26,697 nucleotides of DNA from a virus, in IMG/VR virus record IMGVR_UViG_3300025769_000693, positions 1 to 26,697 of that record. The stretch is one strand, 5' to 3'. Positions 10,683 to 24,843 of the stretch are shown here, piece by piece. Made by a program: the position numbers and the translations under genes. The notes below the pieces were generated by a model, which was not told the DNA's origin, made no database searches, and was given only the letters and a program-made list of their open reading frames with translations. The stretch's first letter is position 1; each line of letters opens with the position of its first letter.

Positions 10683-11246
10683 GTGAAAAAATTTAAAGAT
10701 TTTAGACAAGAAAATTTGCAAGAAGGGGGTCCGTTGATGCCCTTGGTTGTGAAAGCGGCGGCAAAAAAAGTATTGCCCCCTCTTCTGTCGGCAAGCTCGC
10801 GGGCAATGACACACCCAAAAGTAATAAAGAATGCTACTAGATTTTTAGGTATAAGACCAGAAACTTGGGTCGGGGCCGCTACGGGTGCCGGCGCCCTCGC
10901 AAATTATTTAAGCAAAGAGCGCAAAACCAGGCACCCATCTAGAGACAGTCTGCGCTGGGGTGATCCTACAAAGTATCCAGGCGGAACGAGTCTGAAACCT
11001 TTCGGCGGAAAGGGGGATCATAAATATTCGAGGCCTTCAAGATTTAATGTCAATAATAACTTAAATAGTCCCACACCTGGTGTTGTAAACCTACCTAATG
11101 ACGGCAATACCATGGTTGATGATGAAGCACAATACAGAACGTTTCGCGCCGCGCATGGCACCGGCGGTGGTCCGCAAGTAATTACTCCTGGAACGGATCG
11201 TGATATTAACCGTAAAGCACCTAAACGACCGCAAGCGCCGAGATAA
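10683..11246 (+). CDS. Putative internal head protein with capsid-targeting-like N-terminus
   Basis: GTG start with GGAG about ten bases upstream. The 187-residue product begins MKKFKDFRQENLQEGG. This resembles the T4 capsid-targeting peptide (MKTYQEFIAEA), with a prohead-protease-like cleavage after LQE. The rest is basic and Gly/Pro/Asn-rich, with one moderately hydrophobic helix (WVGAATGAGALANYL, about residues 62-76) and low-complexity loops (NVNNNLNSPTPGVVNLPNDG). This composition suits a flexible packaged or ejected protein. It is the only gene between an exact late promoter and the early promoter at 11258. No enzymatic motif is seen. The packaging inference rests on the N-terminal pattern shared with 15234, 16327 and 19217. 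Confidence 0.72.
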   Translation: MKKFKDFRQENLQEGGPLMPLVVKAAAKKVLPPLLSASSRAMTHPKVIKNATRFLGIRPETWVGAATGAGALANYLSKERKTRHPSRDSLRWGDPTKYPGGTSLKPFGGKGDHKYSRPSRFNVNNNLNSPTPGVVNLPNDGNTMVDDEAQYRTFRAAHGTGGGPQVITPGTDRDINRKAPKRPQAPR

Positions 11247-11257
11247 TAAATTCTGAC

Positions 11258-11286
11258 TTGACTTATATATAATACAGTGATATAAT
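11258..11286 (+). promoter_or_regulatory. Sigma70-type promoter of 11312-13191
   Basis: TTGACT (11258-11263), 17 bases, TATAAT (11281-11286). A ribosome site GGAGA follows before ATG 11312. It probably drives the run of genes up to the terminator at 13198. Confidence 0.82.
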
Positions 11287-11311
11287 AGGTAATATTATAT
11301 GGAGACTGAAA

Positions 11312-11497
11312 ATGAACAAAGAAACATACTTAGGCGATTATGATATCAACTCTATGAAAGAACTCGTTTCTTTGGATAAATGGATAAATGACTTGAACAA
11401 GGACTTAGAGGATTCTGGTTCTTCCGATAGATATTATGTCAGAACGGAAGAAATAGAAAAAACAGAACAGGTTCAAGCATATTTATGTCAGGTATAA
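11312..11497 (+). CDS. Hypothetical protein, 61 aa
   Basis: A 61-residue acidic soluble protein beginning MNKETYLGDYDINSMKELV, with a central helix (LDKWINDLNKDLEDSG) and one Cys near the end. GGAGACTGAAA precedes the start. Its 3' end overlaps the signal-peptide gene at 11485 by 13 bases. It is the first gene of an early-type operon. I do not recognise a family. Confidence 0.66.
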   Translation: MNKETYLGDYDINSMKELVSLDKWINDLNKDLEDSGSSDRYYVRTEEIEKTEQVQAYLCQV

Positions 11498-12231
11498 GAA
11501 CATTACTCACCATACTCTTTGTATTGATTTCTTCTTTTGCTCAAGCGAAAGAGTTAAAGGGTAACGAGTGGTATGTTCCGGGAGACTCCATAAAAAGCGA
11601 TGTATTGATACATCAGGGCAGTTACAACATCTCTCTGATTAATTATGATGGCGTTTCTATTGTGCGATTTTATGGAAAAATAGATCGGTCTTCTGTTACT
11701 TATCTTAAATATATCATTTTAACGACTGGTCCCGAATATGTTGCATTTTCTAGTCCCGGTGGTAATTTCATATCGGGTTTGATAATAGGTGAACTTCTAG
11801 AAAATTTAGGAGTTAAAGTCGTAGTACTACCTTATGATTATTGTTTGTCGGCTTGTGCATATGCAATTATGTATGCGCGGCAATTAGAAATTCATGGTCT
11901 TGTTGGTTTTCATTTGCCATATTTTGATATTCTACCCAAAGACAGAGAAGAAATGAAAAATTTATTATCGGACTATGCTAGTACGTTGTATGGTGTACAT
12001 TTATGGATCATTAAACATTTTGGTGATGTGCGTGTTTATACCCATATGTTAAAACATACCGATTTGGATCGTTATGCGACAATCGATTCAAATCAAGATT
12101 TGTTGGACATAAAAAATCCAGATATACCAACAGAATCCACTTTTGATGATATGAATGAAGAAGACATGGTAAAATGGTATCAAATGAAAATCAAAACATA
12201 TGCTAAAATATTAGAAGATCGAGGATTATAA
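11485..12231 (+). CDS. Secreted ClpP-like (periplasmic crotonase-fold) serine protease-like protein
   Basis: A 248-residue protein with a signal peptide (cleavage after AQA, about residue 21). The mature part has the ClpP/S49-like core: VRFYGKID (60-67), the oxyanion loop SSPGGNFISG (89-98), the nucleophile region CLSACAYA (120-127, Ser122), and GFHLPYF (141-147, His143). The order SPGG, C-x-SAC-A, GFH is typical of small periplasmic ClpP-fold proteins of alphaproteobacteria, which are presumed serine proteases. The third catalytic residue is not obvious. The start overlaps the 11312 gene without a clear ribosome site and is probably coupled. A phage-encoded periplasmic protease-like protein could modify envelope proteins, help lysis or counter envelope stress; this is inference. 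Confidence 0.8.
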   Translation: MSGIRTLLTILFVLISSFAQAKELKGNEWYVPGDSIKSDVLIHQGSYNISLINYDGVSIVRFYGKIDRSSVTYLKYIILTTGPEYVAFSSPGGNFISGLIIGELLENLGVKVVVLPYDYCLSACAYAIMYARQLEIHGLVGFHLPYFDILPKDREEMKNLLSDYASTLYGVHLWIIKHFGDVRVYTHMLKHTDLDRYATIDSNQDLLDIKNPDIPTESTFDDMNEEDMVKWYQMKIKTYAKILEDRGL

Positions 12232-12232
12232 C

Positions 12233-12484
12233 ATGACAGAATATACATTTGATTTCGGATTTACTGCCGTATCCGAAGAAGAAATGGAAACAACGCAACA
12301 GTTAGAGACAACTACCGCAACACTCGTTTCTTCACAAGACAAGATAGATCGGTTGTATAATGCCATTGTTCCTCTCCTGAACAATCTCAAAGCAAATCCC
12401 GAAAAGGAATACATTCGTTGGCCGAACAGACTTGCGAAGGTTGAGGAATTCGAGGATCATATTCAGAGCATTTATAATGCCTGA
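12233..12484 (+). CDS. T4-like phage protein of unknown function, 83 aa
   Basis: ATG 12233 lies one base after the previous stop. The 83-residue acidic protein has a Glu/Thr-rich N-terminal half (SEEEMETTQQLETTTATLVS), a coiled helix (DKIDRLYNAIVPLLNNL) and the ending NPEKEYIRWPNRLAKVEEFE. The combination 'LL.NL..NPEK.YI.WP.R..K...F' is widespread in marine T4-like phages without a known role, to my recollection. It is a soluble, probably dimeric helical protein. The stop overlaps the next gene's ATG. Confidence 0.75.
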   Translation: MTEYTFDFGFTAVSEEEMETTQQLETTTATLVSSQDKIDRLYNAIVPLLNNLKANPEKEYIRWPNRLAKVEEFEDHIQSIYNA

Positions 12485-12686
12485 ATATTGTTGTTCTCAT
12501 AGTATTAACGGTGTCCGCTTCGGCATTAGGTTAAAATCGGACACCGAAGAAAATCTAATTGAAAAGTATTCAAAACATTATGAAGATTTTGTGGTTGATG
12601 GAGTGTTCTTAAAAGAGTTTCCTATAACAGAAAGCGAAGAAAAGACGATCCGCAGAAGCGTCATCGTTCCAAAACATGTGAACTGA
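12477..12686 (+). CDS. Hypothetical protein, 69 aa
   Basis: ATG 12477 overlaps the end of the preceding gene by eight bases. The product begins MPEYCCSHSINGVRFGIRLK and has a Cys-Cys pair near the N-terminus and a basic tail. I recognise no family. A CC...H start could bind a metal but no second ligand pair is visible. Coupled translation with 12233-12484 is likely. The longer frame starting at 12432 lies within the upstream gene and is rejected. Confidence 0.6.
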   Translation: MPEYCCSHSINGVRFGIRLKSDTEENLIEKYSKHYEDFVVDGVFLKEFPITESEEKTIRRSVIVPKHVN

Positions 12687-12696
12687 GGGTAGCGAC

Positions 12697-13191
12697 ATGA
12701 CAAAACCAGTTCATTTCACAGATGAACAAATCACGCAAATAATCGACATTCTATCAGAACTTTCGTCAAAAACAAAAATATACTTTGGATGTGATTCTGT
12801 TCGTATTATTAAAAACGGACAAAAGATGGCAAAGTATGCGACTGTTCTTGTCGTACATAAAAATGGTTCAAACGGTTGTAAGATTTTTCGGAACATATCA
12901 TATGAACCAGATTATGAAAAGAACATCTCAAGACCTCGTATGAGACTTATGACTGAAGTGTATAAGGTTGCGGAACTGTACATGCAGATGTATCCATACA
13001 TTTTTGGGTATGATATCGAAGTCCATCTTGATGTTAATCCAGACGAAATACACGGCTCTTCATGTGTAGCAAAAGAAGCAGCAGGATACATTCTTGGTGT
13101 AACTGGAATGGAACCGAAATTGAAACCAGATGCACTGGCGGCATCTTTCGGTGCTGATGGTATTGTTCACGGGTTTCATGAAAGAGTATAA
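12697..13191 (+). CDS. DUF458/YkuK-like RNase H-fold protein
   Basis: The 164-residue product has the RNase H-like pattern of the YkuK/DUF458 family. It shows IYFGCDSVRI (first Asp on strand 1), ATVLVVHKNG (strand 2), RLMTEVYKVAELY (helix with acidic residue), IEVHLDVNPDE (second Asp region), SSCVAKEAAGYILG, and KPDALAASFGADGIVH (C-terminal Asp). The acidic residues of an RNase H metal site therefore appear conserved. YkuK itself has no established biochemical role, so nuclease activity is a family prediction. GAGGGTAGCGAC precedes the start. It ends the operon begun at 11312 and is followed by a terminator. Confidence 0.82.
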   Translation: MTKPVHFTDEQITQIIDILSELSSKTKIYFGCDSVRIIKNGQKMAKYATVLVVHKNGSNGCKIFRNISYEPDYEKNISRPRMRLMTEVYKVAELYMQMYPYIFGYDIEVHLDVNPDEIHGSSCVAKEAAGYILGVTGMEPKLKPDALAASFGADGIVHGFHERV

Positions 13192-13197
13192 GATAAG

Positions 13198-13226
13198 GAA
13201 GAACTCTTAGGGGTTCATCTTTTTTC
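13198..13226 (+). terminator. Terminator after the DUF458-like gene
   Basis: GAAGAAC pairs with GTTCATC with one A-A mismatch, followed by six T and, after CA, a further long T-tract. The T-tracts also lie just upstream of the promoter at 13249. Confidence 0.75.
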
Positions 13227-13248
13227 ATTTTTTTTTTTATTTTTCCTC

Positions 13249-13277
13249 TTGACGAATCACTTTCGAATGCTTATATT
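13249..13277 (+). promoter_or_regulatory. Early-type promoter of 13308-14067
   Basis: TTGACG (13249-13254), 17 bases, TATATT (13272-13277), then AGTGTAAGAGAGAGAGAGG. The box and leader are nearly identical to those at 8535, including CCTC before the -35 and GAATCA after it. Confidence 0.88.
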
Positions 13278-13307
13278 GATAGTGTAAGAGAGAGAGAGGT
13301 AAGAAAA

Positions 13308-13460
13308 ATGTGGAAAGTTGTCTGGAACTATCGCGGTCGCCACGGTGGCGAAAAGATGTTCGCTAAAAACTATGCCGCACAATCTTTCGCGAATGTCATG
13401 ATCCGCAAGGATGGCATCACGAAAGTCGGAGTAAAGTTTGCTGGAAAGGAAGCAGCATGA
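13308..13460 (+). CDS. Small early protein, 50 aa
   Basis: ATG 13308 follows the leader AGAGAGGTAAGAAAA of the 13249 promoter. The 50-residue product is basic and aromatic at its start (MWKVVWNYRGRHGGEKMF) and has no membrane segment. Its stop overlaps the ATG of the next gene (ATGA). Promoter position, ribosome site and coupling make it a confident small gene despite its size. Without it, the 13457 gene would have a 170-base leader. Function is unknown; basic early proteins may bind nucleic acid or RNA polymerase. Confidence 0.75.
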   Translation: MWKVVWNYRGRHGGEKMFAKNYAAQSFANVMIRKDGITKVGVKFAGKEAA

Positions 13461-13678
13461 TTGACCAAACTCGCGGATTTGCAATAATGAGCGATGCAGG
13501 TGTAGTCTTCGCGTATGAGGAAGATTATGGCAATGCCGCTGAACATCTCATGGTGTTGCAAGAAATGGGCAACAAGGGTTTGAAAATCTGGTATGCTGAC
13601 GAAGCAGATGAATATGCCAGTGTCATTGCCCAAGCTTGGTTAGACTCAGACGGTTCAGGAGAAGGACAATTCCTATGA
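13457..13678 (+). CDS. Hypothetical acidic protein, 73 aa
   Basis: The start overlaps the preceding stop by four bases. The 73-residue product is acidic and helical (YGNAAEHLMVLQEMGNKGLK, then EADEYASVIAQAWLDSDGS), with no Cys, signal or membrane segment. Its stop overlaps the ATG of 13675, continuing a coupled chain. AAAGGAAGCAGC precedes the start. No family is recognised. Confidence 0.7.
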   Translation: MIDQTRGFAIMSDAGVVFAYEEDYGNAAEHLMVLQEMGNKGLKIWYADEADEYASVIAQAWLDSDGSGEGQFL

Positions 13679-13884
13679 AAAAAGCACGGAAAACGATTGA
13701 AGTTGAAACTCTGCGTGAAATGACAAATCATTTTCTCGCGAATGAAAATACCAATGCTGATGAACGGCAAGGCGTAGTAGATATGCTTGAATCAGTTCTG
13801 TTCCAGACTGGCAATTATCAAGGTTATCGGTATCTTGATACTGCTGAAATCGAAGGAAACGGAACTCGTCGTTACTACTTCTAA
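13675..13884 (+). CDS. Hypothetical protein, 69 aa
   Basis: ATG 13675 overlaps the previous TGA and follows AGGAGAAGGACAATTCCT. The product has a basic start (MKKARKTIEVETLREM), a central acidic helix (ADERQGVVDMLESVLFQTG) and ends in RRYYF. The longer frame from 13636 lies inside the previous gene and lacks a ribosome site. It is the third member of the coupled early chain from the 13249 promoter. Function is unknown. Confidence 0.68.
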   Translation: MKKARKTIEVETLREMTNHFLANENTNADERQGVVDMLESVLFQTGNYQGYRYLDTAEIEGNGTRRYYF

Positions 13885-13896
13885 AGGAGAGGTGAA

Positions 13897-14067
13897 ATGG
13901 AAGCAATTCTGAAAGACGAAATCAACGCCTATAACGGGATTGAAGTTGATGTGAAAGAACGTCACGAAATGGGTGATGTGATTGTCTACACGGTCGAATG
14001 TGAACCTTATGAGGGTGGTGGCAAAATCTCTTTCGCAGTTCGTGAAGAAAATCTCGAATTTATTTGA
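13897..14067 (+). CDS. Small early protein, 56 aa
   Basis: ATG 13897 follows a strong AAAGGAGAGGTGAA site, 12 bases after the previous stop. The 56-residue product is acidic, with an N-terminal helix (MEAILKDEINAYNG) and a beta-type remainder (VIVYTVECEPYEGGGKISFA). It is below common length cut-offs but well supported by its ribosome site and placement. It is followed by the DUF932 promoter. No family is recognised. Confidence 0.72.
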   Translation: MEAILKDEINAYNGIEVDVKERHEMGDVIVYTVECEPYEGGGKISFAVREENLEFI

Positions 14068-14076
14068 AAAAAACGC

Positions 14077-14105: not shown

Positions 14106-14143
14106 AATCGTAGAAACAGTGAGAAAACAGAAAGGTAAATCTC

Positions 14144-15167: not shown

Positions 15168-15195
15168 GGGAGCGTTTGTTACGCTCCCTTTTTTT
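15168..15195 (+). terminator. Rho-independent terminator after the DUF932 gene
   Basis: GGGAGCGT (15168-15175) and ACGCTCCC (15181-15188) form an 8-bp perfect stem with a TTGTT loop, then seven T. The last T is the first base of the late box at 15195. Confidence 0.95.
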
Positions 15196-15202
15196 ATAAA
15201 TA
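15195..15202 (+). promoter_or_regulatory. T4-type late promoter (TATAAATA) of the internal-protein block
   Basis: Exact TATAAATA, continuous with the terminator T-run, 32 bases before the start at 15234. It probably opens transcription of the late block up to at least 20332. Confidence 0.88.
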
Positions 15203-15233: not shown

Positions 15234-16319
15234 ATGAAAAGTTTCAAGACGTTCTTAAATGAGGGGTTCACTCATTTTCCGAAATCCGAATCTGATATAG
15301 ACAATTTAAAATTTGTTCCAGACGATAAAAAGGAAAATCTCAAAAAACTTTTTGCTGAGTTGTCAATGAACAAATCCGGAATAAAAGACCCTATTGCTCT
15401 CGACGCTACTAAACCCAACATAATAAAATTAATAAGAGTCTTATCTTTCGATTACAACTTAAAATCATTGTCGAAAAAATACGGATTTTCGATAAGTGCT
15501 GGAAATGGTTCTCGCGGCGGAAAGGGGTCGGCTTCGAAAGGATTTGCTTTCGAAAATAATATCGTCAAGGATGTTAAGAAGTATAAAGAAGAAGGTTTGG
15601 ATGGCGATTTCATTTATCCCGACATGATGAAATCGATGCATGATGCATTTCTAAAAGATGCTAAAAAAATATCGGTAAAGTTAGATGGTGCTGCGAACAC
15701 GAAAAGACCTATATTTTTGACTGATGTTTCCATGCTTATCGGCGGACGAGATTTGCAAATCGGATCTAAAGTTACAGATGTTACGGTCACCGCTGATGGT
15801 AAACCCTATTATATTTCAGCAAAATATGGTGGTACAGTTACCTTTTTTAATTCGGGTGTTCGAAAAATATTTCCTCCAGCAGATTTCGAAAAAGGATCAT
15901 TTAAAAACCGAGAAGCAAAAATTCTATTGAATGCATTTGGTATCGACGAACAAAAATTTATTGAAATTTTTTCTAGTTATGATAGATCCAAACCTTCAAA
16001 AGCAAAAAAAATCAGAGTTAATGCAACAGGTAAGGCGAATAAAAGACTTTTACAACAACTTCTTTTATCTGGTGTAGGTTATGGTTATTGGATGGCACAC
16101 CGCCGAGGAAAAAATGTAGAATTTTATGAGATGACTCGTCGAAAAATGATAGACTCGGCGAAAATATCTAAAGTCACGATATTGTATCCTCAACCCGGAT
16201 CAGCAAAACGAATAGACATTGAAGTGCTAACACCTCGCTATGAATTTAAAATAAATATTAGAAACAAACAAGGCGGGTTATATCCAACTCACATCATGGC
16301 AGATTACAAATATAGGTAA
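15234..16319 (+). CDS. Capsid-targeted protein, possible PD-(D/E)XK nuclease or KxDG protein
   Basis: The 361-residue product begins MKSFKTFLNEG, closely matching the T4 capsid-targeting peptide; prohead protease cleavage would fall after FLNE. The body has GSASKGFAFENNIVKDVKKY (Glu107), then TDVTVTADGKPYYISAKYGG (Asp182, Lys197). This spacing of a helix Glu, a strand Asp and an x-x-K strand fits the restriction-nuclease (PD-(D/E)XK) fold, though the usual Glu before Lys is replaced by Ser-Ala. It also holds SVKLDGA (147-153), similar to SVKWDGA of the next gene, so a nucleotidyltransferase relationship is an alternative. First gene after a late promoter, with a 7-base gap to the next. Packaging is inferred; the enzyme class is uncertain. 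Confidence 0.72.
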   Translation: MKSFKTFLNEGFTHFPKSESDIDNLKFVPDDKKENLKKLFAELSMNKSGIKDPIALDATKPNIIKLIRVLSFDYNLKSLSKKYGFSISAGNGSRGGKGSASKGFAFENNIVKDVKKYKEEGLDGDFIYPDMMKSMHDAFLKDAKKISVKLDGAANTKRPIFLTDVSMLIGGRDLQIGSKVTDVTVTADGKPYYISAKYGGTVTFFNSGVRKIFPPADFEKGSFKNREAKILLNAFGIDEQKFIEIFSSYDRSKPSKAKKIRVNATGKANKRLLQQLLLSGVGYGYWMAHRRGKNVEFYEMTRRKMIDSAKISKVTILYPQPGSAKRIDIEVLTPRYEFKINIRNKQGGLYPTHIMADYKYR

Positions 16320-16326: not shown

Positions 16327-17544
16327 ATGATATCCTTCAAATCCTTTCTAGCAGAACAAAAGAACACACATATGACGCACATCGATGATGCTATCATCTA
16401 TGGTGGCGTCAGTGGTGCCAGACAAGCAATCAATGCGATTCGTTCGTTTCGGGATATGCTTCAAGGCCATCATTCTGGTTCCGTATCAGTAAAATGGGAT
16501 GGAGCTCCTGCTATCTTTGCAGGAACTGATCCTTCTGATGGTAAGTTCTTTGTCGCTAAAAAGGGCATCTTTGCCAAGAATCCTAAAGTCTATAAAACAC
16601 CTCAAGAGATTGATGCAGACACTTCAGGCGATCTTGCAGCAAAATTGAAACTTGCTTTACAACACCTACCTTCACTTGGCATCAAAGGTGTCATTCAGGG
16701 CGATTTCTTATTCGCTCAAAACGATCTAAAAAAGGACAAGATTGATGGAGAAGATTTTATCACTTTTCATCCCAACACCATTGTTTATGCCGTTCCAGCA
16801 AATACGCCAATGGCAAAAGATATCGCGTCGGCGAAACTGGGGATTGTCTGGCACACAACATATAAAGGATCAACATTCGAGTCAATGAGAGCGTCATATG
16901 GCGTCAATGTGAACAAGTTTAGATCATCAAGTGCTGTATGGTCGCAAGATGCTTTCCTGAGAGACCTGACGAATGCTACCATGTCAGAATCCGAGACAAA
17001 GATGGTCAATGCTTATCTTTCTGTTGCTGGCAAGATATTCAATAAAATATCAGGATCGACATTACGAGAACTTGAAGCACATCCAGAGTTACCAAGATTG
17101 ATTGAACAATACAACAACACATTTGTTCGAAGTGGTCAAGTCATTCAAGACACCGCAAAGCATACGAACAATTTGATATTATGGATACAGAGAAAGTTTC
17201 ATGATGAAATATCGCAACTGAAAACAGAAAAAGGTAAAACGCCTAGAAGAGAAAAACTGGCAAATATCATGACATTTTTCTCGACCAGAAACAAGATTTC
17301 TATAAAACTGTTGTTCGATTTTCAAAAAGCAATCATAGATGCAAAACTAATTATTATAAATATACTTAATAGATTGTCGAAAGTCAAGACTTTCGTAAGA
17401 ACAAATAGAGGATACAAGACTACTGGCCCTGAAGGTTATGTTGCGATAGACAAACTTTCTGGTTCAGCATTAAAAATTGTTGATAGAATGGAGTTTTCTT
17501 ATAACAACTTCTCGCCGGACATTGTGAAAGGTTGGGAAAAATAA
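16327..17544 (+). CDS. Capsid-targeted KxDG nucleotidyltransferase (nucleic-acid ligase-like)
   Basis: The 405-residue product begins MISFKSFLAEQ, another capsid-targeting-like peptide with a predicted cut after FLAE. SVSVKWDGAPAIFAG (52-66) contains the KxDG motif I of covalent nucleotidyltransferases (Lys56 would carry AMP). Later motifs plausibly follow: FFVAKKGIFAKN (74-85), GVIQGDFLFAQ (121-131, motif III/IIIa-like) and LGIVWHTTYKG (171-181, motif IV-like). The C-terminal half is helical and lacks a recognisable OB fold. The family includes DNA and RNA ligases; similar proteins occur in T4-like marine phages without proven substrate. It lies between two other CTS-type genes. Ligase activity is a motif-based prediction; packaging is inferred. 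Confidence 0.78.
   Translation: MISFKSFLAEQKNTHMTHIDDAIIYGGVSGARQAINAIRSFRDMLQGHHSGSVSVKWDGAPAIFAGTDPSDGKFFVAKKGIFAKNPKVYKTPQEIDADTSGDLAAKLKLALQHLPSLGIKGVIQGDFLFAQNDLKKDKIDGEDFITFHPNTIVYAVPANTPMAKDIASAKLGIVWHTTYKGSTFESMRASYGVNVNKFRSSSAVWSQDAFLRDLTNATMSESETKMVNAYLSVAGKIFNKISGSTLRELEAHPELPRLIEQYNNTFVRSGQVIQDTAKHTNNLILWIQRKFHDEISQLKTEKGKTPRREKLANIMTFFSTRNKISIKLLFDFQKAIIDAKLIIINILNRLSKVKTFVRTNRGYKTTGPEGYVAIDKLSGSALKIVDRMEFSYNNFSPDIVKGWEK
17355..17362 (+). promoter_or_regulatory. Late-box match inside the ligase-like gene
   Basis: Exact TATAAATA about 205 bases before the 17567 start, within coding sequence in an AT-rich stretch. It could boost the downstream internal-protein genes, or be chance. 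Confidence 0.25.
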
Positions 17545-17566: not shown

Positions 17567-18127
17567 ATGAACAATAAACAAAAAATTGCCGAGGCTAAAG
17601 CAAGAGTAAGTCAACTTACCGAAAATCGAATCAACATTTATGATCTTCGTTTGAATGAATCTTTGAACTTGACTGAGAAGAAAAAGAAACTGGATCCAGT
17701 TGACGCAAAAGAGTTAGAAGGTGACTGGGAAGATCGCCTAGACGCTGATATTGACAATGATGGTGACGAAGATGAATCGGATGAATATCTGCACAATCGT
17801 CGTAAAACAATCAAGAAAGCGATGAAGAAAGAGGAAAAAGAATGTGATTGTGATATGGAAGATGATGACGAACATGACGAAGATTGTCCTATGTATAAAA
17901 TGAAGAAAGAATCAATTGATGAAGCAACCATCGACTACAAAGTTAATGTAGACGGTCTTCCACCTATGTTTATTGACGCAAAGAACCCAGGCGAAGTGAA
18001 GATGAAACTCCGTAAACTGCTTCGTAGACCAGATTCGATTGGCGATGTTACAAGAATCACTAAGACGGACCTGAAGAAATATTTCCGGATCAAAGGTATG
18101 GGTAAAGATCCAGAAGCAGTGGAATAA
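17567..18127 (+). CDS. Acidic EF-hand-like internal protein
   Basis: The 186-residue product has three parts. The N-terminus contains repeated protease-like sites (QLTEN, RLNESLNLTEKK). The middle has an EF-hand or dockerin-like loop, DIDNDGDEDESDEYL (61-75), followed by a Cys/Asp/His cluster (CDCDMEDDDEHDEDC). After SIDEA comes a basic C-terminal domain with LPPMFIDAKNPGEVKMKLRK and a predicted nucleic-acid-binding character. Calcium or divalent-metal binding is plausible because all odd loop positions are Asp. The x-L-x-E sites suggest processing by the prohead protease during head maturation. It is four bases from the next late gene. Similar acidic EF-hand-like proteins occur near head genes of marine T4-like phages, from memory. 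Confidence 0.72.
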   Translation: MNNKQKIAEAKARVSQLTENRINIYDLRLNESLNLTEKKKKLDPVDAKELEGDWEDRLDADIDNDGDEDESDEYLHNRRKTIKKAMKKEEKECDCDMEDDDEHDEDCPMYKMKKESIDEATIDYKVNVDGLPPMFIDAKNPGEVKMKLRKLLRRPDSIGDVTRITKTDLKKYFRIKGMGKDPEAVE

Positions 18128-18131: not shown

Positions 18132-19220
18132 ATGGATAAGTTAAACTTCAAAGATTTTGTAGCACATTTCGATCCGGATCGTGATGATCCTGATGGTTAC
18201 TTTCAACATAGAATGAGAAGACGTAGGTCTGGTGTTCTTGGCGAGAGAACATTAACTCCTGATGAAAAAAAGAAACGCGAAGAGATTGCCAAAGCAATAG
18301 AAAGGGACCATCCAGATATGCCTATGTCTAAGAAGATGGCGATTGCTACTGCGGCCGCGAAACGAGTTACTGAAGGTCTTTTACCTTCTATTAATCCTGA
18401 TACTCAAATGGGAAAAATTTCAGTCGGAACGGATGAATCGCGTTCTCTTCGCGCTAAAATGTGGAGAGCAAAAAAAGCAGGAAACTTGGCACTATGGAAT
18501 AAACTGAATGCGGAACTTCAAGCATTAGCACACAAAAAAGCGGCAATGAAAGAAGAAGTCAACCTTGATGAAGGTAAGAAACTTGGACTCTGGGATCGTA
18601 TTCGTAAAAAACGCGAAAGAGGTGAACCTCCCGCAAAACCAGGTGAAGAAGGATATCCAAGCAAAGAAGCGTGGAAAAGACTCACAAAAGAAGATGTTCA
18701 ACTAGATGAGATTTCCGCATATCTTGCTGATCGTGCTAGAAAGAAAGCAAAAGAAGATTTAGAAAAAGAATGGGAAAGAAAACCAAAGACGCCTGAAGAG
18801 GCTGAAAAATCTATGGAGAAAATGCACCGTAGATTAAGACAACACGGTAAGTTTCTTAATTATAAACCAAGAAATGAAGATGTTGAACTTGATGAAGCGT
18901 TGAATATGGCACAAAGACTCAAAAGAGCCAGAATTATGAAAAGGGTTCATAAGAAGATTGAGATGGGTCAAAAAAGAGCCAAGCGCCGAATGGCAAATAT
19001 GGAAACTTTGAAGCGTAGAGCAATCAAGACTGCTAGAAAATTCATTCTTAAAAGACTGACTAAAGGTATACCAAAAGAAGAACTCTCGCCAGCAAGAAAG
19101 CAGGAACTTGAAAAGAAATTGAATACTCCTGCTATGAAAAAACGAATTCAAATGGTAGCAATGAAAATGCTCAAAGACGTTCGTAAAAGAGAAGTTGAGA
19201 GACACAGAGCGAAACAATGA
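18132..19220 (+). CDS. Basic internal head protein with repeated LDE processing-like sites
   Basis: The 362-residue product is extremely rich in Lys, Arg and Glu and almost entirely helical, with no hydrophobic core pattern. It starts MDKLNFKDFVAHF, a variant of the capsid-targeting pattern. Four similar short sites divide it: VTEG (79-82), EEVNLDEG (141-148), EDVQLDEI (187-194), EDVELDEA (249-256). These fit the T4 gp21 preference L/I-x-E, so the protein may be cut into basic fragments of about 45-110 residues that bind packaged DNA. The fragments would parallel the T4 internal peptides or core protein. The region 100-130 contains SRSLRAKMWRAKKAGNLALW, a compact basic helix. The stop overlaps the next start (ATGA). 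Confidence 0.75.
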   Translation: MDKLNFKDFVAHFDPDRDDPDGYFQHRMRRRRSGVLGERTLTPDEKKKREEIAKAIERDHPDMPMSKKMAIATAAAKRVTEGLLPSINPDTQMGKISVGTDESRSLRAKMWRAKKAGNLALWNKLNAELQALAHKKAAMKEEVNLDEGKKLGLWDRIRKKRERGEPPAKPGEEGYPSKEAWKRLTKEDVQLDEISAYLADRARKKAKEDLEKEWERKPKTPEEAEKSMEKMHRRLRQHGKFLNYKPRNEDVELDEALNMAQRLKRARIMKRVHKKIEMGQKRAKRRMANMETLKRRAIKTARKFILKRLTKGIPKEELSPARKQELEKKLNTPAMKKRIQMVAMKMLKDVRKREVERHRAKQ

Positions 19221-20332
19221 AAAGTTTTTCTAGATACTTAGTTGAAGGCAAGAGTGCCATTACTTTCTCCTTTGGTCGGTTGAATCCCCCGACTATTGGT
19301 CATGGTAAGTTATTAGATAAAATGAAATCTGTATCTGGTCCTAATCAGTATAGAATGTATTTGTCGCAATCGCATGACCCCAAAAAGAACCCATTATCTT
19401 ATCGCGATAAAGTCAAATGGGCGAGAAAGATGTTTGCGAAACATGGTAGATCAATTATATACGATCCGAAACTGATCAATGTATTTGATATTGCCACAAA
19501 GTTACACAACGAAGGTTTCACGGATATCACGATGGTTGTTGGCTCGGACAGAATTCGTGAATTCAATATTCTATTGAACAAATATAATAATGTCAAGGGG
19601 CGGCACGGATTCTACAACTTCAAATCCATCAATGTTGTTTCTGCGGGAGAAAGAGATCCTGATGCTGAAGGTGTGACTGGTATGTCGGCATCTAAAATGA
19701 GAGCCGCTGCTGGAGACAATGATTTCTCATCATTCTCAAAAGGCATACCGTCCGAGATTTCTTTGAAAGACTCAAAGAAAATGTTCAACGATGTTCGTCT
19801 TGGTATGGGTCTCAAAGAATCCACGAACTACAGAAATCATGTTAGATTAGACAAAGTATCTGATGCCCGTGAACAATACATCAAAGGTGATTTGTATCTT
19901 CCTGGTGATTTGGTAGAAGATAAAGATGGTAATGAATATGTCGTATCATATTGTGGTGCCAATTATCTTATCGTTGAAGATGCGAAAGGTAACCAATCTC
20001 GTAAATGGTTGAATGATGTTTCCATGATAGAAGAAAAGACAGACAGATGGTATAAAGACAAACCCGAATGGGGAACACCAGAAGCATCTAAAAAGGCGAG
20101 AAAACTGACACCTGGACAAGAAAAGCGCGATATTGTAGAGACAAGAGGCAAATTCTATTATGCCAAATTAAGATCACAGAAAAACAGAGAAAAAGTTGAA
20201 AAAGTTCTTGGGGCCAGAAAAAATTTGATAGGAAAAAACCAATCTGCCGAAAGAGATGACAGAGAATTGGATAATGCTAGAATAAATGATTTCAGAGAAA
20301 AACTGAAAAGAAGAATTGATCCAAATGCGTAA
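19217..20332 (+). CDS. Capsid-targeted HIGH-motif nucleotidyltransferase (cytidylyltransferase-like)
   Basis: The 371-residue product begins MKSFSRYLVEG, a capsid-targeting-like peptide with a cut predicted after YLVE. Immediately after it is a complete nucleotidyltransferase domain: FSFGRLNPPTIGHGKLLDKM (17-36) with the TIGH (HxGH-type) motif, ITMVVGSDRIREF (104-116), and VTGMSASKMRAAA (153-165), equivalent to the ISSTxxR motif. This fold adenylylates or cytidylylates small phosphates; NMN adenylyltransferases and glycerol-phosphate cytidylyltransferases belong to it. The C-terminal half has a small beta domain (YLPGDLVEDKDGNEYVVSY) and a basic helical tail. The first motif Gly-Arg-x-Asn-Pro-Pro resembles NMNAT-type enzymes, so NAD metabolism is possible. 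The substrate is unknown. Overlaps the upstream gene by four bases. Confidence 0.85.
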   Translation: MKSFSRYLVEGKSAITFSFGRLNPPTIGHGKLLDKMKSVSGPNQYRMYLSQSHDPKKNPLSYRDKVKWARKMFAKHGRSIIYDPKLINVFDIATKLHNEGFTDITMVVGSDRIREFNILLNKYNNVKGRHGFYNFKSINVVSAGERDPDAEGVTGMSASKMRAAAGDNDFSSFSKGIPSEISLKDSKKMFNDVRLGMGLKESTNYRNHVRLDKVSDAREQYIKGDLYLPGDLVEDKDGNEYVVSYCGANYLIVEDAKGNQSRKWLNDVSMIEEKTDRWYKDKPEWGTPEASKKARKLTPGQEKRDIVETRGKFYYAKLRSQKNREKVEKVLGARKNLIGKNQSAERDDRELDNARINDFREKLKRRIDPNA

Positions 20333-21227: not shown

Positions 21228-21235
21228 TATAAATA
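21228..21235 (+). promoter_or_regulatory. T4-type late promoter (TATAAATA)
   Basis: Exact TATAAATA 22 bases before the start at 21257, immediately after the 21215 stop. It likely starts the second late sub-block, 21257-24843. Confidence 0.85.
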
Positions 21236-21256
21236 CAAATAAAAAGGAATTGTAAC

Positions 21257-22075
21257 ATGAACAAAGAACTTATGGACGAAATCATCGAGGCTTACATGGA
21301 AGAAAATGGTCTAGATGATATTTCAGAACAAGATTATGACGAAATCGCCGAGGCGTATTTGTATTTCACGGAAAAATCCGCCGAAATAAAAATTCCCAGT
21401 ACCACTGGAAGAGGCTCTGGCGGCACAGACGATCCCCGGAATCCACGATACTTAGGTTATACGTTATCGTCGCCACCAAAAAAACCTGGATATTCGATCA
21501 CAAAAGATCAGCCGCCGAAAAAACAGACAAATCCGACAAGCCTGCGGGTGCCAAGACCAAAATCACGACCCAACGATCTCGCTAAGTCGTCTACTACTTC
21601 TACTACTTCTGCTACTCAACCAAAAAGTTTCGCTGACGCTTTTAGAATTGCTCGTAAAAAGCAAGGTGGGGCCGGGGGTGTATTCAAGTGGAAGGGTAAA
21701 GAATATCAAACGAATATAGCTGGTGAAAAATATGTCAAGAACCCAACACAAATAACATTCGGAGAATCTGCCGGCGCTGATCACGGTAATATGAACAACG
21801 GGTCACCAAGAGGTGAAGGTCTTTCCCCTTCAGCAAAAAGAGAGATGGACCGGCAAACTCCAATGCCAAAAGATGTGAACGAACCTGAAGTAGAAAAAAG
21901 AACTTGGGATGCGTTCCGTGCCACGAATGTCAAAGTTGCTGCCGGTCGTAGAGGAGATTCCTCAAAAGGTGATAAGAAAATCATCAACAAACCTGAAGAC
22001 ATTACAGCAAGAGCATCAAGAAAAGAAGATGATGGTTTCAAGACTGGTCAGGTTGATGTGTCGGTAAAGGCATAA
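21257..22075 (+). CDS. Late structural or internal protein with SFADAFRIARKK motif
   Basis: The 272-residue product has an acidic helical N-terminus (MNKELMDEIIEAYMEENGLD) and a long Pro/Ser/Thr/Lys-rich disordered stretch (about residues 45-120). Then comes SFADAFRIARKKQGGAGGVF with KWKGKEYQTN, and a basic, disordered C-terminus. The 'sFa.AF..ARK..G.G..F.W.GK.Y.T' module recurs in structural and internal proteins of many T4-like marine phages, from memory; its role is unknown. FGESAGADHG is a candidate protease site. AAAAGGAATTGTAAC precedes the start. It is the first gene after a late promoter. A virion protein is likely; an enzyme is not indicated. Confidence 0.72.
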   Translation: MNKELMDEIIEAYMEENGLDDISEQDYDEIAEAYLYFTEKSAEIKIPSTTGRGSGGTDDPRNPRYLGYTLSSPPKKPGYSITKDQPPKKQTNPTSLRVPRPKSRPNDLAKSSTTSTTSATQPKSFADAFRIARKKQGGAGGVFKWKGKEYQTNIAGEKYVKNPTQITFGESAGADHGNMNNGSPRGEGLSPSAKREMDRQTPMPKDVNEPEVEKRTWDAFRATNVKVAAGRRGDSSKGDKKIINKPEDITARASRKEDDGFKTGQVDVSVKA

Positions 22076-22078
22076 GTC

Positions 22079-22396
22079 ATGGCTATATCACCTCCAAACT
22101 GGGCAAAACATGCTGTGCCTTCGCCAAATGGTTGGAGACATCCTCGCACGGGAGAGATGTTGAAGCCTGCTAGGATTTCGCAAGAAGATATTGATGAATT
22201 TTATGGAGTGAAAGAAGAAATGATTCCAACACCGCAAATGCTAACAGAAGCACCAACATCAGAAGAAGATTTTGTTTTGGAACATATGACAAAGGTAGAA
22301 CTTGAAGAAGTCGCAAGAACAAAAGGCGTTGAACTTGATCGTAGACTTCGTAAAGAGACGCTTCTGGAACAAGTTAAGAGTTTATTCGGGAGATAA
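22079..22396 (+). CDS. Small late protein with SAP/HeH-like C-terminus
   Basis: The 105-residue product starts AISPPNWAKHAVPSPNGWRH-type sequence followed by TGEMLKPARISQEDIDEFYG, an N-terminal block I recall from many T4-like cyanophages. The C-terminal 38 residues (MTKVELEEVARTKGVELDRR, then LRKETLLEQVKSLF) match the helix-extended-loop-helix SAP/Rho-N pattern used for nucleic-acid binding. QMLTEAP in between could be a protease site. It lies three bases after the previous stop. A DNA-binding virion component is a reasonable inference. Confidence 0.75.
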   Translation: MAISPPNWAKHAVPSPNGWRHPRTGEMLKPARISQEDIDEFYGVKEEMIPTPQMLTEAPTSEEDFVLEHMTKVELEEVARTKGVELDRRLRKETLLEQVKSLFGR

Positions 22397-22398
22397 AA

Positions 22399-22647
22399 AT
22401 GTCTTTACGCAATACGAGATCATTCAATCCTATGACGGGCCGCAGAACTGGCGCATACTCTAGAATATCAAATCCTGCCGGCGGTGAAGAATATCTTGCG
22501 CATTTGCGAAAGTTGAAGGGAAAATATCATGAACGTAAGGCGAAAGAGACAGAGGGTAAAGACCGGAAATTTCATGAACATATGGCGAAGAGTCTTTTGG
22601 GTGAGGCCTCGGCAGTTGATCTAATTACTGGAAAAAAAGAGAAGTAG
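22399..22647 (+). CDS. Small basic late protein, 82 aa
   Basis: The 82-residue product is strongly basic, beginning MSLRNTRSFNPMTGRRTGAY, then a helix (EYLAHLRKLKGKYHERKAKE), and ends near KSLLGEASAVDLITGKKEK. LLGE followed by AS is a plausible prohead-protease site near the C-terminus. GATAAAA precedes the start, two bases after the previous stop. It resembles small internal or core proteins of T4-like heads in size and charge. No enzymatic motif is present. Confidence 0.68.
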   Translation: MSLRNTRSFNPMTGRRTGAYSRISNPAGGEEYLAHLRKLKGKYHERKAKETEGKDRKFHEHMAKSLLGEASAVDLITGKKEK

Positions 22648-22650
22648 ACA

Positions 22651-22722
22651 ATGTTCAGGTCAATAATCCAGCAATTTTTAACTAGAGGATTAGATCCGAA
22701 CTTTAAAACAAAATTTAGATAA
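22651..22722 (+). CDS. Possible 23-aa micro-ORF
   Basis: A 23-codon frame starts three bases after the previous stop and ends ten bases before the next gene. The peptide (starting MFRSIIQQFLTRGLDP) is basic and amphipathic. It has no clear ribosome site except GAGAAG within the upstream gene. It exactly fills an otherwise empty gap, but chance is possible. Confidence 0.28.
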   Translation: MFRSIIQQFLTRGLDPNFKTKFR

Positions 22723-22732
22723 AAATAAAACT

Positions 22733-23116
22733 ATGAATAACGATGATTTGAATAATATTTTGGAAGATGATTTGATAGAATACGCCGCATTACATTATTA
22801 TACTCCAAAGGGAATTGACATTGAGGAATTTTATGATGATTTGAAACGATTCAAATACGTCAAGAGATTATTGAATCGTTATTATGATACAGGTGATTTA
22901 CCAGAAAGACTTATTCTAAATCATTTGATTGTGATATTTAATGTATTTGGTTATGAAGCGGGTCTTAAAATATTAAATGTCAAGATTGAGGCAATACACT
23001 GGAATGCATTAAAGCCATTTTTGATATTTTTAGAAGCGATAAGAAATGATCAATACACAAACATACCCATGGACCAACATGTCGTGGAAAAACTGAGAGA
23101 GATAAAGAGATGTTAG
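22733..23116 (+). CDS. DUF7207-like T4-like phage protein
   Basis: A 127-residue soluble helical protein. The block EFYDDLKRFKYVKRLLNRYY followed by LPERLILNHLIVIFNVFGYE and a C-terminal helix is characteristic of a small protein found next to head or replication genes in many T4-like marine phages (I associate it with DUF7207). No biochemical role is known to me. The last seven bases overlap the start of the kinase gene, so the two are coupled. It lacks CTS-like features. Confidence 0.72.
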   Translation: MNNDDLNNILEDDLIEYAALHYYTPKGIDIEEFYDDLKRFKYVKRLLNRYYDTGDLPERLILNHLIVIFNVFGYEAGLKILNVKIEAIHWNALKPFLIFLEAIRNDQYTNIPMDQHVVEKLREIKRC

Positions 23117-24843
23117 AAGAAGAACAAATTTTAGAAGGCGTCAACGATCCCGCAATATTCAAAGCAGTATTTTTAGCGGGCGGACCGGGTTCTGGAAAAT
23201 CTTTTATTGTAGGTAAAACTGCTTTAGGTCCATTGGGTTTTAGAGTTGTGAACTCAGACGATGCTTACGAAATCAAACTTGCTCAAGCAGGTATGAAACC
23301 AACACCCGAAAATATCTATTCGCCTAAAGGACAGGATATTCGGGACAGAGCAAAAGCATTAACCGCCAAAAAACAGAAACTTTATCAAAAGGGTCGTCTT
23401 GGTATTGTCATTGACGGTACTGGTAGAGACATAAACAAAATCAAAAAACAAATATCCCAGTTTCAAAAAATCGGATATGAAATAGCGATGATTTTTGTCA
23501 ATACGGATTTAGATACTGCTTTATTGAGAAACAGACAAAGAGCAAGAACATTACCCGATAAACAAGTCAAGGATATGTGGCTTGAAGTTCAAAAGAATAT
23601 TGGCGCATTTCAAAAAATGTTTGGTCGTCAAAACTTTTTTGTCGTTGATAATAGCGAAGGATCGAACTGGAACCAACAAACTACGAATGTTTACAAGAAG
23701 ATCAGTGATTGGTCTAAGAAACCAGCAGATACAAAAGCAGCAAAAGACTGGATTAAAGCACAAAGAAACATGAGTGAATCCCTTGCCGTAGGATTTAATA
23801 CTCCTCACGGAAAGAGAAGCGATTTCAGAAATCTTATATTAAAACATCTCAACAAGAAAGTAAAATCTGACAAATCCAATAGACAATCCTTGAGAGGGCA
23901 TATACTGGATATTAAAAGATCAGTAAATACAGACCTTTCAGTAAAAGAAATAGAGAGGTTATACAATACCATGAGAAAAAGAGGTTTAACTGAAGGTAAA
24001 TATACCGATGAAATGCGGGCAAAATTAGCGAATAAGATTGCCGCTCACAACGCTGAAATGCAAAATCAAATAGATGCATACAAAAAAATGACCCCGGACG
24101 AGCGAAAGACGCATAATGCCAGGGCCGCAAAACAGGCAGAAGCGAATTGGAAGAAAGGGAAAGCGGAACTGGCCAAACAGCAGCAAAGTACCTTGCGATT
24201 GAGGTCTGGTCAACTTGTTCCTGATACTGGGGGAAAAGCGTCTGGAACTCTCAAATTAAAAGACACACATAGAGTTGACACCAACAAACCTAAACCACGC
24301 CCAACTTTAGGTGGTGTAACAAGAACTCCACCTGAAGGCAAAATAAAATTTGGACAACAAGGTGATGGTGGTTTTCCGAAAGTTGGTGGTGGCAGAGGGG
24401 CATCCGCTCCGAATCTTGGCCGCGGATTTATCAAGAGGTTATTAAATATAGAATCATATGATCATCTTTATGAAGAAGAAGCGGGAGCAGCACCAAGTAA
24501 TACGGCGGCATCTGCTGGAATTCCTGCTGATACTGCGAACATGGGACCAAACAAGAAAAAGAAAAAAAAGATAAGTGAAATCCTCCGAAGATATAATATT
24601 AATATGAAAGAAGATGTGACACGGGATACTGCAATATATCGTCCAGATGCTACTGGAAAATTCACAACAACTCCTGAAGTTCGTCCGGAACCAAGACCAA
24701 CATCAGCCCCCAAAACATCACCAAGACCTAAGACCAGACCAACATCAGCCCCCAAAACATCACCAAGACCTATGACCAGATCAATGAAATATGGGTCAGG
24801 TGCTTATCACGGTCAAAGGAATTATTTTCCACCCGCACCTTAA
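23110..24843 (+). CDS. P-loop kinase (zeta toxin/PNK-like) with disordered tail, likely virion-packaged
   Basis: The 577-residue product has MLEEEQILEGVND at its N-terminus; ILE-G fits a prohead-protease cut. The kinase domain follows: Walker A FLAGGPGSGKSF (21-32), catalytic-type VNSDDAYE (47-54), GIVIDGTGRD (98-107), and a lid with arginines RNRQRARTLPDKQV (140-153), then NFFVVDNSE. This order matches zeta-toxin and polynucleotide-kinase-like P-loop phosphotransferases. Zeta toxins phosphorylate UDP-GlcNAc; PNKs phosphorylate 5'-OH nucleic-acid ends; neither can be chosen from sequence. The C-terminal two thirds are basic and disordered, with protease-like sites (RGLTEGKY, LNIESYD) and two 14-residue PTSAPKTSPRP-type repeats. 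Coupled to the upstream gene by overlap. Kinase domain confident; packaging inferred. Confidence 0.85.
   Translation: MLEEEQILEGVNDPAIFKAVFLAGGPGSGKSFIVGKTALGPLGFRVVNSDDAYEIKLAQAGMKPTPENIYSPKGQDIRDRAKALTAKKQKLYQKGRLGIVIDGTGRDINKIKKQISQFQKIGYEIAMIFVNTDLDTALLRNRQRARTLPDKQVKDMWLEVQKNIGAFQKMFGRQNFFVVDNSEGSNWNQQTTNVYKKISDWSKKPADTKAAKDWIKAQRNMSESLAVGFNTPHGKRSDFRNLILKHLNKKVKSDKSNRQSLRGHILDIKRSVNTDLSVKEIERLYNTMRKRGLTEGKYTDEMRAKLANKIAAHNAEMQNQIDAYKKMTPDERKTHNARAAKQAEANWKKGKAELAKQQQSTLRLRSGQLVPDTGGKASGTLKLKDTHRVDTNKPKPRPTLGGVTRTPPEGKIKFGQQGDGGFPKVGGGRGASAPNLGRGFIKRLLNIESYDHLYEEEAGAAPSNTAASAGIPADTANMGPNKKKKKKISEILRRYNINMKEDVTRDTAIYRPDATGKFTTTPEVRPEPRPTSAPKTSPRPKTRPTSAPKTSPRPMTRSMKYGSGAYHGQRNYFPPAP
24694..24777 (+). 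repeat. 42-bp tandem repeat inside the kinase gene
   Basis: Two direct copies of a 42-base unit (24694-24735 and 24736-24777) differ at one position, encoding the 14-residue unit RPTSAPKTSPRPKT with a K/M change. Length in multiples of three keeps the frame. The near identity implies a recent duplication, and copy number may vary. Confidence 0.9.

What the first reader, a model, noticed from the sequence alone, without database searches (positions are those of the whole stretch)
10683..24843. Family of late proteins sharing a T4 capsid-targeting-like N-terminus: a putative virion-packaged enzyme set
Four late products begin MKKFKDFRQENLQEG, MKSFKTFLNEG, MISFKSFLAEQ and MKSFSRYLVEG, and a fifth (18132) begins with a variant. 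In T4 the internal proteins begin MKTYQEFIAEA, a capsid-targeting peptide cut by the prohead protease after L/I-x-E. The same pattern here sits in front of unrelated bodies: a KxDG nucleotidyltransferase, a HIGH nucleotidyltransferase and a possible nuclease. All are in late transcription units, two of which start at exact TATAAATA boxes. One targeting peptide on several different catalytic domains suggests a modular system that loads enzymes into the capsid for delivery with the genome.
Basis: partly seen in the sequence, partly recalled or inferred. Interest (0 to 1): 0.88.

Follow-up and report, generated by a model that had tools for sequence, protein, structure and literature searches.

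The report
Shared address tag packages phage enzymes
Several unrelated enzymes of this marine T4-like virus of bacteria carry the same ten-residue front tag that phage T4 uses to load proteins into its head, and in related viruses enzymes bearing the tag have been found in purified particles, which suggests a general system for sending ready-made enzymes into the host with the DNA.

Summary
It is not chance: in 80 related loci the motif follows 133 of 1680 N-terminal ATGs but 3 of 5102 internal ATGs. It fronts at least 12 protein clusters and is on 2 of 178 replication/metabolism and 0 of 99 structural proteins. In 32 DUF6267 homologues the least variable leader positions are 4, 7, 8 and 10, those that in T4 govern targeting (4, 7) and cutting (8, 10) (PMC9026906). 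Published virion proteomics found the cytidylyltransferase in four cyanophages; all four copies carry the leader. S-PM2's leaderless copy was not detected; S-CREM1's leader-bearing copy was apparently missed in a shallow proteome. Corrections: 18132 is a multi-module basic protein with LDE boxes at module borders, 10683 is weak, 23110 (P-loop kinase) was missed. Cutting, packaging and delivery in this phage are inferred. The tag is known from T4; new here are its enzyme cargo, a variable cargo slot and an explanation for puzzling virion enzymes.

The parts
15195..15202 (+). T4-type late promoter box TATAAATA, ends 31 bases before 15234
15234..16319 (+). Leader-bearing protein, 361 aa; leader MKSFKTFLNE (15234-15263), predicted cut after E10; body probably a PD-(D/E)XK-type nuclease
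   Evidence: four homologues 59-67% identical over nearly the whole length, one partial at 63%, two distant at 30-34%; HinP1I Z 9.2; Hjc Z 4.3-5.9
16327..17544 (+). DUF6267 protein, 405 aa; leader MISFKSFLAE (16327-16356), predicted cut after E10; body RNA-ligase-like with KWDG motif
   Evidence: (PF19782 E 7.7e-101)
17567..18127 (+). Acidic 186-aa protein with a DIDNDGD..YLHNRRK module, found once per genome in 5 of the 7 other phages scanned; co-located, function unknown
18132..19220 (+). Multi-module 362-aa protein; LDE boxes end at residues 147, 193 and 255 (nt 18572, 18710, 18896), predicted internal cut sites; last module very basic (38 K/R, 9 D/E in 107 aa)
19217..20332 (+). Cytidylyltransferase/NMNAT-like protein, 371 aa; leader MKSFSRYLVE (19217-19246), predicted cut after E10; family found in virions of four cyanophages
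   Evidence: (phrog_395 E 6.5e-71)
23110..24843 (+). P-loop kinase-like protein, 577 aa; predicted cut after E9 (MLEEEQILE|GVNDP); some homologues carry the full leader
   Evidence: (AAA_33 E 6.3e-12)
10647..10654 (+). TATAAATA box, ends 28 bases before 10683
10683..11246 (+). GTG-start protein MKKFKDFRQENLQE|GG, 187 aa; weak candidate member, no independent homologue held
21228..21235 (+). TATAAATA box, ends 21 bases before 21257, a gene without the leader

Best explanation
The shared N-termini are capsid-targeting sequences of the T4 kind. Late in infection the tagged enzymes are made, the first ten residues bind the scaffold core of the growing head, the head is assembled around them, and the phage's gp21-like protease cuts after L/I-x-E, freeing the mature enzymes inside the head, from which they enter the next host with the genome. 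The tag is modular: it sits on a PD-(D/E)XK-like nuclease, an RNA-ligase-like protein (DUF6267), a nucleotidyltransferase and, through homologues, a P-loop kinase, and the 18132 protein uses internal sites of the same kind to release basic modules. SHOWN (sequence or published data): the tag, its enrichment, its conservation at the T4-critical positions, its presence on virion-detected enzymes of relatives. INFERRED: cutting and packaging in this phage, delivery, and what the enzymes do in the host.
For: (1) Enrichment: 133/1680 N-terminal-zone ATGs against 3/5102 internal ATGs in 1112 ORFs of 80 related loci (the loci are related, so not independent); C48C1 7/253 against 0/856; the T4 control finds ipII and ipIII. 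(2) Specificity: 107/245 module-family proteins, 2/178 replication/metabolism, 0/99 structural. (3) At least 12 clusters plus 6 singletons carry it; in a pattern-only scan 81 of 83 matches start an ORF of 60 aa or more or run off the contig, with bodies including adenylate kinase, methyltransferase-like and HAD-like proteins. (4) DUF6267 leader, 32 sequences: E10 in 32/32, L/I/M8 in 32/32, F/L4 in 32/32; the four least variable of positions 2-10 are 4, 7, 8, 10, the positions that mutagenesis of T4 IPIII showed to govern targeting and processing (PMC9026906 passage). In the 74 of 80 loci where the anchor after the leader could be read, [LIVMF]xE precedes it in 74 of 74. (5) Virion proteomes: cytidylyltransferase detected in S-SM1, S-SCSM1, S-CREM2, S-SZBM1; the single homologue in each genome begins with the leader. 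In S-CREM2 all three strict-pattern proteins (SAM lyase, APH/ChoK-like kinase, cytidylyltransferase) are virion proteins, against 52 of 215 called ORFs (p 0.0135). (6) Leaderless controls: S-PM2 cytidylyltransferase has no leader and was not detected in its virion (PMC3037559); S-SZBM1_141 DUF6267 starts about where the window's protein would be cut (MAKNTHLEHLEDD) and is not among its 30 virion proteins. (7) Gp21-like protease in 9/9 related or reference phages; similar L/I-x-E sequences (FLTE, FLSE, LLGE, FISE) at the junction of the major capsid protein homologous to the T4 cut (T4 cut site recalled). (8) Module borders: the basic module after EDVELDE|ALN is a separate tagged protein elsewhere (MLSFKQFVSE|VLDATQRR; MLSFINFISE|ALDATQRR), and the module after EEVNLDE|GKKLGLWD is MKKFNAWIEE|GGLWDN in L116.
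Against: No virion proteome of this phage exists and its protease and capsid genes lie outside the fragment. S-CREM1's cytidylyltransferase carries the leader but the text on its shallow proteome (14 proteins, 4 structural) does not name it. In S-SZBM1 only 1 of 3 strict-pattern proteins is among the 30 detected, judged by length. With a looser pattern S-CREM2 gives 4 virion proteins of 7 (one-sided p 0.053). Authors of two proteome papers raise co-purification. HTVC008M, S-RSM4 and S-PM2 have no strict-pattern ATG start at all, so the system is patchy, and only 13 of 60 upstream neighbours of DUF6267 fit the strict pattern. None of the passages I read reports cut N-termini for these enzymes.
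Confidence: 0.85

Rival explanations
1. The leader is a conserved protease-site cassette that travels with late genes, but the proteins act in the infected cell and appear in virions only as contaminants.
For: Authors of the S-CREM2 and S-SCSM1 proteomes raise co-purification; S-CREM1's leader-bearing enzyme apparently not detected.
Against: The strict pattern is on 3 proteins of S-CREM2 and all 3 are virion proteins, while it is on 2 of 178 replication/metabolism proteins; conservation falls on the T4 targeting and cleavage residues.
Confidence: 0.08
2. The leader binds the head scaffold to serve assembly or DNA condensation, and the enzymatic bodies are idle in the virion.
For: 18132 and the C48C1 63080 protein are very basic; the cargo families vary freely.
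Against: Likely catalytic motifs are conserved: KWDG invariant in 32/32 DUF6267, GRxNPPxxGH in the cytidylyltransferases (used to collect them), Pfam adenylate kinase and SAM lyase above cut-off in tagged proteins.
Confidence: 0.12
3. Chance similarity of short N-termini.
For: The motif is short and degenerate; chance-like matches exist (UvsW of C48C1).
Against: About 130-fold enrichment at N-termini and family-wide conservation in homologues 51-69% identical to the window protein.
Confidence: 0.02

Closest known systems
T4 internal proteins IPI-IPIII and their capsid-targeting sequence
   Same: Ten-residue N-terminal leader with hydrophobic 4 and 7, L/I at 8, E at 10; gp21-type protease in the relatives.
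   Different: T4 cargo named in the passages read are internal proteins and Alt; here the cargo is a set of enzyme-like proteins in a conserved gene block after the replicative helicase in the relatives, with a variable slot.
Virion-associated enzymes of cyanomyoviruses (NMNAT/cytidylyltransferase, kinases, SAM lyase)
   Same: Same cytidylyltransferase family and, as found here, the same leader.
   Different: Their presence in virions was reported without an entry mechanism in the passages read.
Giant-phage (SPN3US, phiKZ) prohead-protease-processed ejection proteins
   Same: Head protease cuts inner proteins C-terminal to a glutamate.
   Different: SPN3US propeptides are mostly much longer and its motif is A-x-E.
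T4 Pnkp/Rnl1 RNA repair (recalled, not from a call)
   Same: Kinase-like, HAD-like and RNA-ligase-like bodies all occur with the tag in this group.
   Different: T4 makes these enzymes after infection (recalled); activity of the present proteins is unknown.

Membership tests
T4-type capsid-targeting sequence | Ten-residue N-terminal leader conserved at positions 4, 7, 8, 10 | tested here: met
   (DUF6267); window leaders of 15234, 16327, 19217 fit
T4-type capsid-targeting sequence | Gp21-type prohead protease in the same phage | tested here: inconclusive
   Fragment lacks the region; PF03420 found in 9 of 9 related or reference phages
T4-type capsid-targeting sequence | Tagged protein found in the virion | tested here: inconclusive
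   Not testable for this phage; published for leader-bearing homologues in S-SM1, S-SCSM1, S-SZBM1, S-CREM2; not named for S-CREM1
T4-type capsid-targeting sequence | Leader removed after residue 10 | not testable with these tools
   Needs N-terminal proteomics
T4-type capsid-targeting sequence | Late expression | tested here: inconclusive
   TATAAATA boxes before 10683 and 15234; no transcript data
DUF6267 (PF19782) | Pfam score above cut-off | tested here: met
   16327: 338.6 bits, cut-off 27
RNA ligase / covalent nucleotidyltransferase fold (16327) | Ligase fold and KxDG motif | tested here: inconclusive
   KWDG invariant in 32; 37 of the 50 VIA-align rows are RNA or DNA ligases, best Z 7.9 (Naegleria RNA ligase, 182 aligned, rmsd 3.9), T4 Rnl2 7.2, Rnl1 7.0, the other 13 rows are DnaK; the tool warns that a best Z of 7-8 is common without kinship; Foldseek best E 0.2; no sequence hit in PDB
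PD-(D/E)XK nucleases (15234) | Nuclease core fold | tested here: inconclusive
   HinP1I Z 9.2, 201 aligned, rmsd 5.7, alone above 6; Hjc rows Z 4.3-5.9 among unrelated rows at similar Z; Foldseek no hit below E 0.07; model pLDDT 76 from 8 sequences
Cytidylyltransferase-like (19217) | Phage family profile match | tested here: met
   phrog_395 E 6.5e-71
Cytidylyltransferase-like (19217) | Pfam PF01467 curated cut-off | tested here: not met
   13.8 bits, cut-off 21: filed only under the phage family, not under PF01467

The most novel reading that the evidence does not exclude
Marine and freshwater T4-like phages carry a general, evolvable cargo-loading system: one ten-residue tag swapped among many protein families, with a variable gene slot next to DUF6267, delivers a ready-made RNA/NAD repair and nuclease kit (RNA-ligase-like, kinase, HAD-like phosphatase, NMNAT-like, PD-(D/E)XK) at time zero of infection, before any phage gene is expressed, to defeat host defences such as anticodon nucleases, NAD depletion or restriction.
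Probability: 0.3. Interest if true: 0.92.

Novelty: new variant of a known kind. Interest (0 to 1): 0.8.

Why it matters
Enzymes such as NMNAT-like nucleotidyltransferases and kinases have repeatedly turned up in cyanophage virions without an explanation, and co-purification was raised as a possibility. A recognisable ten-residue tag turns 'which proteins does a marine phage inject?' into a question that can be approached from sequence and checked by N-terminal proteomics, gives a handle on proteins of unknown function such as DUF6267, and points to a natural, swappable cargo-loading system in abundant viruses.

Tried and rejected
Rejected: 18132 as a leader variant (no L-x-E near its start). 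Chance as the source of the motif. The DIDNDGD module as a second tag used on many proteins of one genome: it occurs once each in the window, C48C1, HTVC008M, Melnitz, S-RSM4 and S-PM2 and not in DLP6 or T4. Repeated LDE boxes as common: of eight sequences scanned only 18132 and one very long S-RSM4 protein had two or more. Foldseek gave no firm match for either model; only the VIA-align second look gave coherent lists. No PDB sequence relative for 19217 or DUF6267; for 23110 only a marginal adenylate kinase match. The near-identity DNA search of the phages collection listed tRNA-region matches in the 20 of 31 records shown. A literature search for DUF6267 gave 0 papers. Searches for capsid targeting with cyanophage, marine or T4-like terms and for NMNAT with cyanophage and virion listed no paper that, by title, start of abstract or the passages I read, applies the sequence to cyanophage or marine-phage enzymes; one search showed 12 of 703. 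The library lacks most subscription journals and supplements were not available, so priority is not proven. Papers: passages of PMC3037559, PMC9602691, PMC9004378, PMC5694885, PMC3012670, PMC9026906, PMC9964418; passages plus one section each of PMC10665884 and PMC9146016. Clokie 2008, Dreher 2011 and Mullaney and Black 1996 not read, known only through those passages. Recalled, not from a call: the exact T4 gp23 cut site, the T4 Pnkp/Rnl1 comparison, and the PD-(D/E)XK label for HinP1I and Hjc.

Counts left out or reshaped: one search matched the 52 S-CREM2 virion proteins by stop coordinate on either strand and got 52 of 215 called ORFs; strand-correct matching found 50 of 52. S-SM1 and S-SCSM1 cytidylyltransferases were identified as the only homologue in their genomes, not by the papers' gene labels. 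Alignment A3 holds the window and 31 of 80 loci: 38 loci were tried, L086 was dropped for a stop in my coordinates and six more (L081, L096, L108, L127, L148, L149) as a precaution; those six all keep [LIVMF]xE before the anchor, and 6 of 80 loci could not be read at the anchor. At least 120 stretches had the tag pattern (scan stopped at its limit); 80 were returned and read. My ORF caller prefers a motif-giving start, which favours hits; one search used ATGs without that preference. One of the two replication hits (Melnitz gp44-like) looks like such a forced TTG start. T4 IPI was not looked up.
Full report
WHAT WAS CLAIMED.

WHAT THE WINDOW IS. It is a whole held virus record of 26,697 bases. 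Its closest annotated relatives by DUF6267 are T4-like phages: Phage C48C1 (59.7% identity), DLP6, Melnitz, HTVC008M and cyanophages. A T4-type RNase H is present at 3539.

OBSERVATION. The quoted N-termini are exact. The pattern picks three starts in the window, 15234, 16327 and 19217. In 80 related loci fetched by DUF6267 homology, 133 of 1680 ATGs in the first 25 codons of 1112 ORFs are followed by the pattern, against 3 of 5102 internal ATGs. Whole genomes vary: C48C1 7/253 against 0/856, T4 3/350 against 1/915 (including ipII and ipIII; one other start lies inside the annotated uvsW), DLP6 2/238, Melnitz 1/286, and none in HTVC008M, S-RSM4 or S-PM2. The loci are related and the families repeat, so these are not independent counts.

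SPECIFICITY. Sorting ORFs by homology to annotated C48C1 genes, the strict pattern is on 107 of 245 module proteins, 2 of 178 replication or metabolism proteins and 0 of 99 structural proteins. Of the two, UvsW matches at its annotated start and the other looks like a TTG start forced by my script.

CONSERVATION. In 32 DUF6267 sequences the residue before the predicted cut is E in 32 of 32, position 8 is L/I/M in 32 of 32, position 4 is F or L in 32 of 32 and position 7 is Y or F in 24 of 32; the rest varies, and insertions fall around the cut. The four least variable of positions 2 to 10 are 4, 7, 8 and 10. The T4 literature reports that the first ten residues of IPIII are what packaging requires, that targeting lies mainly at residues 4 and 7 and processing at 8 and 10 (PMC9026906, passage). 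Taking all 80 loci, the anchor after the leader could be read in 74, and [LIVMF]xE lies one to seven residues before it in 74 of 74. Of 80 proteins with the cytidylyltransferase motif and a closed start, 44 fit the strict pattern and 68 a relaxed one; Melnitz and HTVC008M fall outside the strict one.

VIRION DATA. The cytidylyltransferase family of 19217 was detected in virions of S-SM1 (PMC3037559), S-SCSM1 (as NMNAT; PMC9602691), S-CREM2 (PMC10665884 Table 3) and S-SZBM1 (PMC9146016 Table 1). Each of the four genomes has one homologue and each begins with the leader: MKKFSAFLNE|AERS, MKSFLQFLKE|AAES, MKNFSSFLTE|ADEK, MRFRQFIIE|AVAA. S-PM2's copy is fused to part of DUF6267, has no leader and was not detected in its virions according to PMC3037559. 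In S-SZBM1 the DUF6267 protein starts about where the window protein would be cut and is absent from the 30 detected proteins. In S-CREM2 the strict pattern marks three of 215 called ORFs, all in the virion: SAM lyase, APH/ChoK-like kinase and cytidylyltransferase (p 0.0135); near-variants are on virion proteins gp12 (called CRISPR-Cas9 nuclease by the authors), gp13 and gp136, noticed by eye in the same output after the fact. Against: S-CREM1's copy has the leader but the text on its 14-protein proteome does not name it; only 1 of 3 strict-pattern proteins of S-SZBM1 was detected; a looser pattern in S-CREM2 gives 4 of 7. S-CRM01's kinase, reported in virions by a study cited in PMC10665884, begins MISFDQFLSE|KK.

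PROTEASE. A gp21-family protease (PF03420) is in 9 of 9 related or reference genomes. The major capsid protein of C48C1 has GGFLTE|TGP at the junction homologous to the T4 cut (position recalled), Melnitz AFLSE|AAP, DLP6 SLLGE|AAP, and metagenomic relatives FISE, MLNE, MLSE, MLFE, the same kind of site as the leaders.

MULTI-MODULE PROTEIN. 18132 carries EEVNLDE|GKK, EDVQLDE|ISA and EDVELDE|ALN. The module after the last box is a separate tagged protein in C48C1 (MLSFKQFVSE|VLDATQRR) and L121 (MLSFINFISE|ALDATQRR); the module after the first box is tagged in L116 (MKKFNAWIEE|GGLWDN) and begins a protein in HTVC008M. Module borders therefore coincide with predicted cuts. Among homologues of the last module the residues before E|AL vary and are not always L-x-E. 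The last module has 38 K/R and 9 D/E in 107 residues.

WHAT THE CARGO IS. 16327 is DUF6267. Its model (pLDDT 85) aligns best with RNA ligases (Z 7.9 down; 37 of the 50 rows are RNA or DNA ligases, 13 are DnaK), with KWDG invariant; a best Z of 7 to 8 alone proves little, and Foldseek was not significant. 15234 (pLDDT 76) aligns best with restriction enzyme HinP1I, Z 9.2, then Hjc resolvases mixed with unrelated rows: a probable PD-(D/E)XK nuclease. 19217 is a phage cytidylyltransferase. 23110 is a P-loop kinase; 14 of the 15 homologue rows shown keep E|G at the junction, the other alignment starts after it. PHROG 455 spans both DUF6267 and the cytidylyltransferase in one family, which links their functions. 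The gene before DUF6267 varies: many clusters of proteins of very different size and sequence, 13 of 60 with the strict leader. A pattern-only scan of viral contigs found the tag on an adenylate kinase (PF00406, 150.8 bits), methyltransferase-like, NMNAT-like (below Pfam cut-offs) and HAD-like proteins and many unknowns.

MECHANISM AND LIMITS. Best reading: T4-type targeting, prohead cutting, co-packaging and co-delivery. Packaging and cutting in this phage, delivery and the roles of the enzymes are inferred. A plausible purpose is to act at time zero against host defence or damage (RNA repair, NAD supply), which is speculation.

NOVELTY. The tag itself is known from T4, and a T4 review (PMC9026906) already suggests it may help T4-like phages incorporate various proteins. 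What I did not find in the searches listed is its link to marine-phage enzymes, to their virion proteomes, to DUF6267, or to a multi-module cargo protein.

Noticed in passing
window 2589-2953: Permuted alphaproteobacterial-type tmRNA (Rfam RF01849/RF04321) with tag ANDNFAPRAYALAA, like the two-piece tmRNA reported for Melnitz and other marine phages.
   Followed up: partly
window 26-817: C-terminal part of a tyrosyl-tRNA synthetase (PF00579 E 4e-44) at the very end of the contig beside phage genes: phage-encoded, or host DNA/assembly join.
   Followed up: no
window 7933-9342: Seven tRNA genes (Asp, Pro, Arg, Leu, Leu, Met, Thr) in one cluster by ARAGORN; Rfam reports six of them.
   Followed up: no
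L007 13448 (C48C1 63448): The C48C1 cytidyltransferase is annotated from 63514; a GTG start at 63448 gives the leader VIKNFSQYLLEE, so the record probably misses its N-terminus.
   Followed up: yes
L190:7704-10313 (S-CREM2 gp12) and L175:702-1253 (S-CRM01 g128): A longer leader variant (RW..W then F.SFMAE|AA or DSFIKE|AA) on a virion protein called CRISPR-Cas9 nuclease by its authors and on an S-CRM01 protein; Pfam found no family in gp12.
   Followed up: partly
window 17747-17850 and one gene each in C48C1, HTVC008M, Melnitz, S-RSM4, S-PM2: Calcium-site-like DxDNDGDxD..YLHxRRK segment, once per genome; the window protein also matches parts of PHROG head, SSB and cytidyltransferase families.
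   Followed up: partly
NC_000866 114210: A T4 start inside annotated uvsW (a stretch the record flags for sequence discrepancies) also reads MLLEFKQFLYEAS, fitting the tag pattern.
   Followed up: no
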